Notes: generated by a model not told the origin, from the letters alone. A stretch of DNA of 64,000 bases from an uncultured Pelagibacteraceae bacterium (GCA_902571015.1 CACGAC010000002.1:1-64000); one strand, 5' to 3'; shown: positions 41,689 through 45,718, numbered from the stretch's first letter. Numbers and translations are program-made.

Positions 41689-42375
41689 ATGGATAGAAAT
41701 AATTTAAATTTATTAGCATCTCAAAATATTAATATTAGCTTAGATAATTTTGTAGTTGCTATTTTTCTATCAATATTTTTGGGTTTTCTTGTTCAACAGT
41801 TTTACATTAGATTCTCAACGACTTTATCTAATAAGAAAGAATTTTCAAAAATTTTTTTAATTTTAGCTGCTACTACTACAATAATAATAACCATAGTAAA
41901 ATCATCTTTAGCTTTATCACTAGGTCTAGTTGGTGCTTTATCTATTGTTCGTTTTAGAGCAGCAATTAAAGAACCAGAGGAACTTGTTTATCTTTTTTTA
42001 TTGATTGCTATTGGTCTTGGTTGTGGAGCTGGCCAATTTATAATTACATCTTTAGGTGTGATTATAATCTTATTATTAATTTTAATTTACTCAAGGATTA
42101 AAACTAAAAAAAAATTAAAGAACTTAGATAAATTGAGTTTATCTGTAATATGTGATTATAATGCAGATCAAGAACAAATCGAAGAAATAAAAAACTTATT
42201 ATTAGAGAAATCTGAATACGTAAAGCTAATATCTTTTGTAAAATCTGATGATAACACTACTATAAACTTTCAAGTACAACTTAAAGAATTTATTGATTTA
42301 AACCTGATTATTAATAAAGTCCAAAAAAAAAATGTTAAAGTCGTTGTTGCACAATCTGATGTAATTACAGCATAG
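41689..42375 (+). CDS. DUF4956-family membrane protein
   Basis: Four hydrophobic segments; GLVGALSIVRFRAAIKEPEELVYLFLLIAIGLGCGAGQF matches the DUF4956 core as recalled. Confidence 0.82.
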   Translation: MDRNNLNLLASQNINISLDNFVVAIFLSIFLGFLVQQFYIRFSTTLSNKKEFSKIFLILAATTTIIITIVKSSLALSLGLVGALSIVRFRAAIKEPEELVYLFLLIAIGLGCGAGQFIITSLGVIIILLLILIYSRIKTKKKLKNLDKLSLSVICDYNADQEQIEEIKNLLLEKSEYVKLISFVKSDDNTTINFQVQLKEFIDLNLIINKVQKKNVKVVVAQSDVITA

Positions 42376-42389
42376 TTTTATATTAAACA

Positions 42390-45062
42390 ATGATTATTAA
42401 TGATAAAAAAAAAGTTAAATACAATAAAACTAATATCTCAAATAAATTTTATAAATATTATTTTTTCTTTACTGTTGGATTGTTTTTATTATTTATTTTT
42501 TTTATATTACAGACCGGATTTTGGAAAAACTATCAAAAAACTTTTTTAGATAAATTTTACAAAAGATCTTATAATAATTACTTAAAGATACCTTATATTA
42601 TTCCCCAAGCAATTTATGGTTTCTTTATAAAGATACCCGAGTTAAATATTAATATTTCTTTGGACAATCATTTAATTTTAGAAAAAGATCGAATTAATAT
42701 ATTAGGAAAAAAAGAAGGTAAAGGCATGACATATGAATTTACTAAAGTTAATGGATCTATCGATTATAAAAACGAAAACCACAAAATAGATATAAGATTA
42801 AAAGGTGATAGAAAAATTCATTTTTTAAAACAAGACGAAGCATCCTATAAAATTGAAATTGATAACAATAAAACAATTATGGGGTTAAATAAATTTTCAC
42901 TAATTAAACCTAGAGCTCGAAATTATATTCATGAATGGCTTTATCATCAATTAATGGAAGAAGGTAATTTAATAAAACTCAAATATGAATTTGTAAAATT
43001 AAAAATTAATGGTGAAGGTCAAGGTCTTTACGTTTTAGAAGAGGGATTTGACAAAATTTTAATCGAGAGGAACAAAAGAAGAAATGGACCAATTTTTTCT
43101 TTAAAGGAAGAATGGTCATTTGGGGAAACAGATAGAACCAATAAAGAAAAATTATTTGAAGTTTATAATAAAAGAAATTGGCTTTCCGAAGAAAATATTG
43201 AACAAACTTTATTTGCAAATAATTTATTAAAAAATTTTTTTAATGGCAAAGAAGACTTGGAAGACTCATTTGATATTGATAAATGGGCCTGGTTTATGGC
43301 TATTTCAGATATTAATTATTATGCGCATGGAACTGATGTTAAAAGCGTTAAATTTTATTTTAATCCTTTAAGTGCAAAATTTGAGCCTGTTCCTTTTGAT
43401 GGACACAGGACAGTTGTTGATTTGAACAAAAACATTATTGGTTGGGAAAATTTTGGTAATAGTGCACCATCATTTCAAAAAGCGATTGAATGTCGAGAAA
43501 ATTTAGCGAATTGTGTTAATCAATTTCCCTACAAATTCTTTTTTAAATATGATGGAAGTTTAAATAAAGTTTTTTTTGAAAAATATAAAAAAAATATATA
43601 TAGGATTAGTTCAAAGAAGTTTCTAGATATTTTTTTTAAAGAGAGATCAAAACAAATCTATAATATTAATGCAAAAATTTATGGCGATTACTTTTATGTT
43701 GATAACATTCTTTATTTTGGAAATGGATTATATTATTTTGATAAAGATGAAATTTATAGACGAGTTAATAGAATAAAAAGTAAAATATCAACTATTCCTG
43801 CAAACATATTTATCTCTCAAAATAAAAATCGTATTAATATTAAAAACTGGAATATTACAAGTGATACAGTTTTTACTAACCATGACTTAAAAATAAAAAA
43901 AATATTTTGCAAAAATATTTTAAATGAACAGGAAAAAATTTTCACTTTAGATTATGCTATTTTAGAAACAGATCATAAAATTACTTTTACAAAAAATATA
44001 TCTAACGAAATAAAATGTGAAAATGTTCTACTAATTGATAGAGTCATTAATTCAGAATATATTATCCCTATAGATCATCTTAATATAGAGTTTAATAATA
44101 CAATCGATACAAATTTAGAAAGTTTCAAAAAATATTTTTATTTTGAAAATAAGGATCTTCGATTAAAAAAAAAACAAACTATAATTGATAAGAATATAAT
44201 TATACCTAAAGGATATATTGTTAGGATAATTCCTGGTGAAGAAATAATATTAATCAATGATTCATTTATTATTTCAGACTCAGCATTTAATGTTATTGGT
44301 GATAACGCCAATAATCAAATAGTTAAAATTGGTGGTAAAAAAGAAAATAAAGGTGGAGGTATTTTTATAAAAAATTCTGATAATGAAAGTCTATTTAAAA
44401 ATGTAAAATTTGAATACTTAAGTGGTGATTTAGAAAACTTATCTTTAGATAAATATACTGTTTATGGATCACTTAATATTTATAACTCAAAAGTAAAATT
44501 AAAAAATTTTCAAATGAAAAATATTTATTCTGAAGATGCTATAAATATAATTAGTTCATCTTTTTCATTAGAAAATGGAATTTTTGATACAATTTCATCA
44601 GATGCTATAGATGTTGATTATGGTAATGGTAACATTAATAAGTTAAAATTAAATAATGTTTTAAATGATGCTATAGATTTTTCAGAGAGTTACACAAATG
44701 TCTCTAATATTTATTTTGAAAATATTGGAGATAAAGCTATAAGTGTAGGTGAAAATTCTACAGTAGATATCAATAATTTAAATATTCTTAAATCATATTT
44801 GGGTATTGCAAGTAAAGATGGTTCTAAGGTAAATGCACAAAAAATTAAAATTTCTAATGTGACTATACCATTTGCATCATATAAAAAAAAGAATGAATAT
44901 AAAATTCCAGAATTAAAAGTTAAGGAAATTATTTATAATGGGTATAAAAAGTTATATTTAAAAGATAAGATTTCTCGACTTGAAATAGACAATGAAATAA
45001 AAAATGAAATAACGAGAAATGTCTTAGATATTGTGTATAATCCAAATCAAAAAATTTACTAA
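42390..45062 (+). CDS. Membrane-anchored CotH-kinase-like protein with C-terminal right-handed beta-helix region
   Basis: N-terminal TM YYFFFTVGLFLLFIFFILQTGFW; CotH-like IDIRLKGD, GLNKFSLIKPRARNYIHEWLYHQLM, GLYVLEEGFDKILIERN, KFEPVPFDGHR; C-terminal repeats DAINI/DAIDV/DAIDF/KAISV. Confidence 0.75.
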   Translation: MIINDKKKVKYNKTNISNKFYKYYFFFTVGLFLLFIFFILQTGFWKNYQKTFLDKFYKRSYNNYLKIPYIIPQAIYGFFIKIPELNINISLDNHLILEKDRINILGKKEGKGMTYEFTKVNGSIDYKNENHKIDIRLKGDRKIHFLKQDEASYKIEIDNNKTIMGLNKFSLIKPRARNYIHEWLYHQLMEEGNLIKLKYEFVKLKINGEGQGLYVLEEGFDKILIERNKRRNGPIFSLKEEWSFGETDRTNKEKLFEVYNKRNWLSEENIEQTLFANNLLKNFFNGKEDLEDSFDIDKWAWFMAISDINYYAHGTDVKSVKFYFNPLSAKFEPVPFDGHRTVVDLNKNIIGWENFGNSAPSFQKAIECRENLANCVNQFPYKFFFKYDGSLNKVFFEKYKKNIYRISSKKFLDIFFKERSKQIYNINAKIYGDYFYVDNILYFGNGLYYFDKDEIYRRVNRIKSKISTIPANIFISQNKNRINIKNWNITSDTVFTNHDLKIKKIFCKNILNEQEKIFTLDYAILETDHKITFTKNISNEIKCENVLLIDRVINSEYIIPIDHLNIEFNNTIDTNLESFKKYFYFENKDLRLKKKQTIIDKNIIIPKGYIVRIIPGEEIILINDSFIISDSAFNVIGDNANNQIVKIGGKKENKGGGIFIKNSDNESLFKNVKFEYLSGDLENLSLDKYTVYGSLNIYNSKVKLKNFQMKNIYSEDAINIISSSFSLENGIFDTISSDAIDVDYGNGNINKLKLNNVLNDAIDFSESYTNVSNIYFENIGDKAISVGENSTVDINNLNILKSYLGIASKDGSKVNAQKIKISNVTIPFASYKKKNEYKIPELKVKEIIYNGYKKLYLKDKISRLEIDNEIKNEITRNVLDIVYNPNQKIY

Positions 45063-45718
45063 TGAAAAATGATTTTAGATTTGAAAAAAAGTGGGTATTT
45101 ACAAAAATTGATAAAGAAACTCTTTTTTCAAATTTAATAAATAGTAAATTGTATTTTAGAGAACAATACTCTGAAAGAACTGTAAATAGTATATATTTTG
45201 ATACTCTAAATCTTAAATCTGCATTTGATAATCTAGATGGTGTTAGCAATAGAGAAAAATACAGAGTTAGATGGTATGGAAAAAATACAGAAATATTTGA
45301 TAATCCAATTTTGGAAAATAAGATAAAAAAAAATTTCCAAGGATATAAGATATTCTTTAAACTTAATAATTTTGATAAAAAGAAATTGGACAATGAAAAC
45401 CTTTTTGAACTAACTAAGTTGGTAAATAAGTTTTCTGTTAATAAAAATCTCTATCCAATAACAATGACAAATTATAGGAGAAATTATTTAATTTCAGCAA
45501 ATAATGACATTAGAGCAACTTTAGACTTTAATTTACAATACAAAAAATTGAATAATTATATTGAAAACTTTTTTGTTAAATCTGAAGATATAATATTAGA
45601 ATTTAAATATTTAACTAATATAGACTCTTATTTAAGGGAGCAGATTTCTGGAATTACTAGAATTTCAAGAAATTCAAAATATGTAAATTCATTAATGAGT
45701 AATATCTATCAATTATAA
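45062..45718 (+). CDS. VTC-domain (polyphosphate-polymerase-like) protein
   Basis: FRFEKKWVF, SIYFDT, REKYRVRWYG, MTNYRRNYL, ILEFKY, RNSKYVNSL match the VTC-domain motif order; start overlaps upstream stop (TAATG). Confidence 0.82.
   Translation: MKNDFRFEKKWVFTKIDKETLFSNLINSKLYFREQYSERTVNSIYFDTLNLKSAFDNLDGVSNREKYRVRWYGKNTEIFDNPILENKIKKNFQGYKIFFKLNNFDKKKLDNENLFELTKLVNKFSVNKNLYPITMTNYRRNYLISANNDIRATLDFNLQYKKLNNYIENFFVKSEDIILEFKYLTNIDSYLREQISGITRISRNSKYVNSLMSNIYQL

What the first reader, a model, noticed from the sequence alone, without database searches (positions are those of the whole stretch)
41689..45718. Three-gene DUF4956 / CotH-kinase-like / VTC cassette: candidate uncharacterised phosphate-transfer or polyphosphate system
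Seen: three co-directional tightly packed ORFs (14-nt gap, then TAATG overlap) just after a tRNA-Ser, between otherwise ordinary housekeeping genes. They encode a polytopic DUF4956 protein, an N-terminally membrane-anchored CotH-like protein, and a VTC-domain protein. Established: eukaryotic VTC domains polymerise polyphosphate from ATP; CotH of Bacillus spores is an atypical protein kinase; DUF4956 has no assigned function that I know of. I recall, unverified, that these three families co-occur in other bacteria. Inference: a membrane complex that makes or exports polyphosphate, or modifies an envelope component by phosphorylation, carried as an accessory module in a streamlined genome.
Basis: partly seen in the sequence, partly recalled or inferred. 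Interest (0 to 1): 0.82.

Follow-up and report, generated by a model that had tools for sequence, protein, structure and literature searches.

The report
Cross-membrane phosphate-chain cassette in SAR11
A small set of three genes in an ocean SAR11 bacterium, found in the same combination in many unrelated bacteria and some archaea, looks like a machine that makes chains of phosphate inside the cell and uses them on the cell's outer surface, which could show how bacteria phosphorylate things where there is no ATP.

Summary
In detail: a DUF4956 membrane protein, a CotH-like protein and a VTC protein are packed at 41689-45718. The genome looks like SAR11 (best DUF4956 matches come from Pelagibacter and Pelagibacteraceae). 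Relatives with 94-99% identical flanks have tRNA-Ser directly abutting the next gene, so the cassette is accessory.

The trio is a real unit. The same 16 of 101 related genomes carry VTC and DUF4956. All 59 SAR11 loci not cut by an end hold all three. A scan of GTDB genomes found the same trio across many bacterial phyla and some archaea. It is already known, but only beside pel genes of Gram-positives; a 2025 paper reports not finding it elsewhere.

New here: (1) the CotH part is fused to a beta-helix holding all the invariant residues; (2) one of the two CotH catalytic aspartates is replaced by a conserved histidine; (3) some SAR11 cassettes add a secreted inorganic pyrophosphatase, separate or fused to the CotH protein, the only one of its family in those genomes.

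Best reading: the VTC protein makes polyphosphate from ATP, DUF4956 passes it out, and the CotH/beta-helix protein uses it outside, probably on a surface glycan. Donor, substrate, transport and kinase activity are inferred.

The parts
41406..41497 (+). tRNA-Ser(GCT); the cassette lies between its 3' end and the following transglycosylase-like gene
   Evidence: empty site in L084-L086
41689..42375 (+). DUF4956 protein, 228 aa: 4-5 predicted membrane helices plus a C-terminal ACT/MgtC-C-like domain; invariant K71, R88, R90, K94 in or beside the membrane helices
   Evidence: PF16316 3.7e-15; AF2 model pLDDT 79.9; Foldseek hits of the C-domain only, none below E 0.001; 52-sequence alignment
42390..45062 (+). 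CotH-like / beta-helix protein, 890 aa, one N-terminal membrane anchor (about residues 25-43), bulk predicted outside the cytoplasm
   Evidence: PF08757 4.8e-10; hydropathy; AF2 model pLDDT 79.7
42627..43799 (+). CotH kinase-like domain (about residues 80-470); His313 (43326-43328) replaces B. subtilis Asp228, Asp337 (43398-43400) matches Asp251
   Evidence: profile match to B. cereus CotH 5jd9 E 6.4e-19; Foldseek 5jda E 5.8e-13, target TM 0.68; residue counts
44127..44987 (+). Right-handed beta-helix domain (about residues 580-866) holding all 18 residues invariant in 53 relatives (D716, D738, D741, D743, D760, D763, D781, K782, E788, K809, D810, K833, K834 and others)
   Evidence: weak Foldseek resemblance to PL3 pectate lyases, AlgE4 and NosD
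45062..45718 (+). VTC (triphosphate tunnel) protein, 218 aa, no membrane segment; R68, R70, K87, E180, K206 match Vtc4 R264, R266, K281, E426, K458
   Evidence: PF09359 5.9e-22; yeast Vtc4 profile match E 9.6e-14; invariant in 46 of 46 aligned sequences

Best explanation
A trans-envelope phosphate-chain system. The cytoplasmic VTC protein polymerises phosphate from ATP. The DUF4956 membrane protein, with its conserved basic residues, passes the chain across the inner membrane. Outside, the membrane-anchored CotH/beta-helix protein uses the chain as phosphate source or ligand on an envelope polymer, most likely a surface polysaccharide. In some lineages a secreted pyrophosphatase, or a secreted metallophosphoesterase, removes the pyrophosphate or phosphate left over. 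Shown here: families, clustering, VTC catalytic residues, and secreted-type pyrophosphatases joined to the cassette in part of SAR11. Inferred: topology of CotH and DUF4956, polyphosphate as product, DUF4956 as conduit, CotH using the chain, glycan as target.
For: The three families are inseparable: same 16 of 101 genomes, 59 of 59 uncut SAR11 loci, 91 full trios with correlated divergence r 0.85-0.92. The VTC protein keeps the tested Vtc4 catalytic residues and has no membrane segment. CotH has an N-terminal anchor here and signal-peptide-like N-termini in relatives. DUF4956 has invariant K71, R88, R90, K94; in yeast VTC basic residues line the polyP channel and are needed for translocation (PMC9911596). 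Family I pyrophosphatase: in 9 of 59 uncut SAR11 cassettes, with signal-peptide-like start or fused to CotH, catalytic residues kept; it occurs in 4 of 101 relatives, each time in a cassette; 48 metagenomic proteins carry CotH+beta-helix+pyrophosphatase. Secreted-looking metallophosphoesterases lie at 24 loci. The genome already has PPK1, so a second, storage-only polymerase is less likely. Glycan genes are frequent neighbours and fill the same insertion site in relatives. Deleting the DUF4956 or CotH gene of S. intermedius changes Pel level and aggregation (PMC12345266).
Against: No biochemical evidence was found that any bacterial member of this cassette makes or exports polyphosphate. Deleting the VTC gene of S. 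intermedius gave no reported aggregation phenotype. One of two known CotH catalytic Asp residues is His here, so CotH may not be a kinase. The pyrophosphatase is a SAR11 speciality: none in the 80 GTDB loci scanned with the SAR11-built model, and this window's cassette has neither it nor the phosphoesterase. No solved structure matches the DUF4956 membrane part, so the pore role rests on analogy.
Confidence: 0.42

Rival explanations
1. Polyphosphate secretion for structure: VTC and DUF4956 export polyphosphate as an anionic envelope or matrix component; the CotH domain is a pseudokinase that holds the chain, and the beta-helix binds or trims the partner glycan. No phosphotransfer takes place outside.
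For: His replaces the catalytic Asp228 of CotH in 47 of 53 relatives; the beta-helix holds all invariant residues and resembles glycan-active beta-helices; Pel, the partner in streptococci, changes in amount when DUF4956 or CotH is deleted; frequent glycan-gene neighbours.
Against: The replaced position is a conserved His, not random, and Asp337 is kept in 45 of 53, which suggests retained chemistry; a pyrophosphatase fused to CotH is harder to explain if the chain is only structural.
Confidence: 0.25
2. Regulatory module: DUF4956 is an MgtC-like regulator with an ACT-like sensor domain, and the VTC protein processes a nucleotide or tripolyphosphate signal that controls surface polysaccharide synthesis; bulk polyphosphate is not made.
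For: The DUF4956 C-terminal domain resembles ACT, PII-like SbtB and MgtC C-domains; triphosphate tunnel enzymes act on varied substrates (abstract of PMC4641920); the S. intermedius VTC deletion lacks a reported aggregation phenotype.
Against: The VTC family match is to polyphosphate polymerase Vtc4 with R264, R266, K281, E426, K458 all kept; a purely regulatory module does not need a secreted pyrophosphatase.
Confidence: 0.17
3. Phosphate storage or scavenging module for low-phosphate water: polyphosphate is stored at the envelope and recovered as phosphate by secreted pyrophosphatase or phosphoesterase.
For: In some Alphaproteobacteria a DUF4956-VTC pair without CotH sits beside a PHO4 phosphate transporter and, once, a phytase-like gene; accessory, patchy distribution in marine bacteria.
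Against: PPK1 is already present; the examined SAR11 cassette neighbours are housekeeping or glycan genes, not phosphate-uptake genes; does not explain the invariant beta-helix.
Confidence: 0.1

Closest known systems
CotH-PPP-DUF4956(-DUF4832) accessory genes of Gram-positive pelDEADAFG loci (PMC7112168; S. intermedius SIR_1592-1594, PMC12345266)
   Same: Same three families in one cluster: DUF4956 with ACT-like C-domain, VTC-type polyphosphate polymerase, extracytoplasmic CotH protein.
   Different: No PelG in this genome; CotH is followed by a beta-helix instead of the FN3 domain described for SIR_1594; some SAR11 members carry a secreted-type or fused pyrophosphatase; spread over many phyla.
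Eukaryotic VTC complex (Vtc1/3/4), polyphosphate synthesis coupled to translocation (PMC9911596)
   Same: The VTC protein is a triphosphate-tunnel homologue with the Vtc4 catalytic residues; basic residues are invariant in the membrane partner.
   Different: Only the tunnel domain is present (218 aa, no fused membrane domain); the membrane partner is DUF4956, with no detected relation to Vtc1; an extracytoplasmic CotH protein is added.
Bacillus CotH spore-coat kinase (5jd9/5jda; PMC7821199)
   Same: CotH fold by profile and model; the Asp251 equivalent kept.
   Different: Asp228 equivalent is His; membrane-anchored or secreted; fused to a beta-helix.
Acidocalcisomal pyrophosphatase (5c5v) alongside eukaryotic VTC
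   Same: Family I pyrophosphatase on the far side of the membrane from a VTC polymerase; sequence match E 2.9e-15 for the L041 enzyme. The organelle comparison is general knowledge.
   Different: Bacterial periplasm rather than organelle; in SAR11 it can be fused to the CotH/beta-helix protein; absent from this window's own cassette.

Membership tests
CotH + VTC + DUF4956 trio of Pel loci | three families adjacent in one cluster | tested here: met
CotH + VTC + DUF4956 trio of Pel loci | contiguous with pelDEADAFG | tested here: not met
   PelG absent from the 93%-complete genome; the genes beside the cassette are sarcosine-oxidase-like genes and a lytic-transglycosylase-like gene (names from reading the translations), and tRNA-Ser
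VTC polyphosphate polymerase (PF09359) | tunnel-domain homology to Vtc4 | tested here: met
VTC polyphosphate polymerase (PF09359) | catalytic R264, R266, K281, E426, K458 | tested here: met
   alignment (the 8i6v_E offset gives Vtc4 numbering); invariant in 46 of 46
VTC polyphosphate polymerase (PF09359) | makes polyphosphate from ATP | not testable with these tools
   needs biochemistry
CotH protein kinase (PF08757) | CotH fold / family profile | tested here: met
CotH protein kinase (PF08757) | catalytic Asp228 (B. subtilis numbering) | tested here: not met
   aligned to His313; His in 47 of 53. Position assigned from the 5jd9 alignment and the 23-residue spacing to Asp251
CotH protein kinase (PF08757) | catalytic Asp251 | tested here: met
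   Asp337; Asp in 45 of 53
DUF4956 (PF16316) | curated profile above cut-off | tested here: met
   56.5 bits against 30.6
MgtC/SapB | curated profile above cut-off | tested here: not met
   12.3 bits against 31.4; only the C-domain fold resembles MgtC
Polysaccharide lyase family 3 (beta-helix part) | curated profile above cut-off | tested here: not met
   PF03211 13.6 bits against 25; weak fold match only

The most novel reading that the evidence does not exclude
An extracytoplasmic phosphotransfer system that runs on exported polyphosphate instead of ATP: VTC and DUF4956 push a phosphate chain through the membrane, a diverged CotH enzyme (His in place of Asp228) with a beta-helix transfers phosphate from it to a surface polymer, and in some lineages a linked pyrophosphatase pulls the reaction forward.
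Probability: 0.22. Interest if true: 0.9.

Novelty: new variant of a known kind. Interest (0 to 1): 0.63.

Why it matters
The trio was published as an accessory of Pel polysaccharide loci and reported as not found elsewhere. Here it appears as a widely exchanged cassette in SAR11, Prochlorococcus, Planctomycetota, Saprospiraceae, candidate phyla and archaea. It offers a concrete answer to where phosphate for modifications outside the cytoplasm could come from, and carriers with culture-collection or strain names (Prochlorococcus MIT 9314; Flavilitoribacter nigricans DSM 23189 has the DUF4956-CotH/beta-helix part) make it testable. The recurrent CotH/beta-helix/pyrophosphatase fusion directly links the CotH-type protein to pyrophosphate chemistry outside the cytoplasm.

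Tried and rejected
Plasmids (DUF4956) and phage records (VTC): no match. Membership in a pel locus: rejected, PelG absent. CotH as a straightforward kinase: not accepted, because Asp228 is His. MgtC and PL3 membership: below cut-offs. Att-like duplication of the tRNA 3' end: none found, the direct repeats are A/T-rich matches of the chance kind. Promoter and terminator scan: promoter-like sites no more than in shuffles, no terminator. Literature for CotH with Prochlorococcus, or for a polyphosphate-fed periplasmic kinase: nothing relevant found in the open library.

Full report
Observation. Pfam confirms DUF4956, CotH and VTC above curated cut-offs. GC is 0.21-0.25 against about 0.295 for the rest of the window. 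The genome is 1.12 Mb in 22 contigs, about 93% complete; one close DUF4956 match is named Candidatus Pelagibacter by its source and several relatives' loci are named Pelagibacteraceae in GTDB, so I treat it as SAR11.

Accessory island. In L084-L086, whose sarcosine-oxidase-like flank is 97-100% and whose downstream gene is 94-95% identical, the tRNA-Ser directly abuts that gene. The window has 4.2 kb there instead. In other relatives the same site holds different genes: glycosyltransferases, UDP-galactopyranose mutase, a mannosyltransferase-like protein, a methyltransferase, a TPR protein. No flanking repeat was found, so the insertion mechanism is unknown.

A unit. VTC and DUF4956 occur in the same 16 of 101 relatives (chance of identical sets 6e-19 if genomes were independent, which they are not). 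Pfam CotH is seen in only 8 of these, but a homologue of the CotH-like protein lies beside one or both of the others in them, apart from loci broken by contig ends. Over the family, 74 of 397 genomes have DUF4956, against 10 of 399 sampled from the phylum. Of 78 SAR11 loci, 59 hold all three; the other 19 are cut by a contig end or by the end of the stretch taken. Gene order varies; 40 loci have DUF4956-CotH-VTC. A scan of GTDB genomes with the CotH/beta-helix alignment gave 80 loci from many phyla, including Prochlorococcus marinus MIT 9314, Planctomycetota, Saprospiraceae, Chloroflexi, candidate phyla and archaea labelled Nanoarchaeota, Woesearchaeota and Pacearchaeota; 45 show all three families. 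Many of these are metagenome bins, so single placements may be wrong. Pairwise distances of the three proteins correlate at r 0.85-0.92 over 91 trios.

What the parts are. VTC: matches yeast Vtc4 with R264, R266, K281, E426 and K458 all present, and these are invariant in 46 of 46 aligned sequences (numbering from the 8i6v_E offset; R264/R266/E426 are the residues mutated to inactivate Vtc4 in PMC9911596). It has no membrane segment. DUF4956: four or five helices plus an ACT/MgtC-C-like domain, with K71, R88, R90 and K94 invariant. CotH protein: anchor at about residues 25-43, signal-peptide-like N-termini in several relatives, CotH fold by profile to 5jd9 (E 6.4e-19) and by model, then a right-handed beta-helix. 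All 18 invariant residues of 53 relatives lie in the beta-helix. B. subtilis Asp228, inactivated in D228Q (PMC7821199), falls on His313, His in 47 of 53; Asp251 falls on Asp337, Asp in 45 of 53. Kinase activity is therefore open.

A phosphate-handling enzyme outside. In nine SAR11 loci the cassette includes a family I pyrophosphatase: five separate genes with signal-peptide-like starts and four C-terminal fusions to the CotH/beta-helix protein. Signal peptides were judged by eye, not with a dedicated predictor. In the 14 genomes checked the only PF00719 match is the cassette one, or there is none; in 101 relatives it occurs four times, each time in a cassette. Of 52 metagenomic matches to the fused type, 48 carry CotH, beta-helix and pyrophosphatase together, so the fusion is not an assembly error. 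It was not seen in the 80 GTDB loci. A secreted-looking calcineurin-type phosphoesterase lies within or near 24 of the 158 loci, some of which are the same genome taken twice. The window's own cassette has neither.

Mechanism. I favour synthesis inside, passage through DUF4956, and use outside by the CotH/beta-helix protein on a surface polymer. Shown: families, clustering, VTC catalytic residues and a linked secreted-type pyrophosphatase in part of SAR11. Inferred: everything about product, transport, donor and target. The presence of PPK1 elsewhere in the genome argues that ordinary storage is not the purpose. Against it: the S. intermedius VTC deletion had no reported aggregation phenotype, while DUF4956 and CotH deletions changed Pel levels (PMC12345266).

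Known and new. The 2020 Pel study named the set as a Pel accessory (PMC7112168), and the 2025 S. intermedius study reports failing to find this arrangement outside the Pel locus. This genome has no PelG; pel genes were not searched for around the other loci. New here are the cassette without pel in this genome, its spread, the beta-helix with its invariant residues, the His substitution and the pyrophosphatase link. In the open library I found no paper describing these; subscription papers and preprints were not searchable.

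Noticed in passing
window 41498-45726: The gap between tRNA-Ser(GCT) and the following transglycosylase-like gene is an insertion hot spot in relatives, empty or filled with different, often glycan-related genes.
   Followed up: yes
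L136 6046-7095, L139 7645-8667, L141 6013-7041, L144 7822-8844: A ~340-aa protein with an N-terminal hydrophobic segment sits between DUF4956 and CotH in these SAR11 variants; the three scanned had no Pfam match above cut-off.
   Followed up: partly
L134, L135, L137, L209, L214, L237, L254, L265, L273 and others: Diverged secreted-looking calcineurin-like phosphoesterase (GH.Y...LGD motif) next to or inside the cassette in 24 of 158 loci.
   Followed up: partly
L142 1-6837: CotH/beta-helix ORF of at least 2279 aa running off the stretch taken; the extra ~1400 residues were not identified.
   Followed up: no
L197-L199: Alphaproteobacterial DUF4956-VTC pair without CotH; in L197 and L198 it lies beside a PHO4 phosphate transporter, in L198 also a phytase-like gene.
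   Followed up: partly
L205 4914-7566: VTC, DUF4956 and an HlyD-type membrane fusion protein in a row.
   Followed up: no
L158 3887-5494, L167 7182-8792: Second CotH-like gene without beta-helix directly upstream of DUF4956, in loci that also carry the pyrophosphatase fusion.
   Followed up: no
L216, L225: Cassette in two Prochlorococcus genomes; in MIT 9314 among surface-polysaccharide-type genes (read from translations), in AG-347-M15 near a tRNA-Phe.
   Followed up: partly
G000 and 100 relatives: Family I soluble pyrophosphatase was found in only 4 of 101 SAR11-order genomes, each time inside this cassette.
   Followed up: yes
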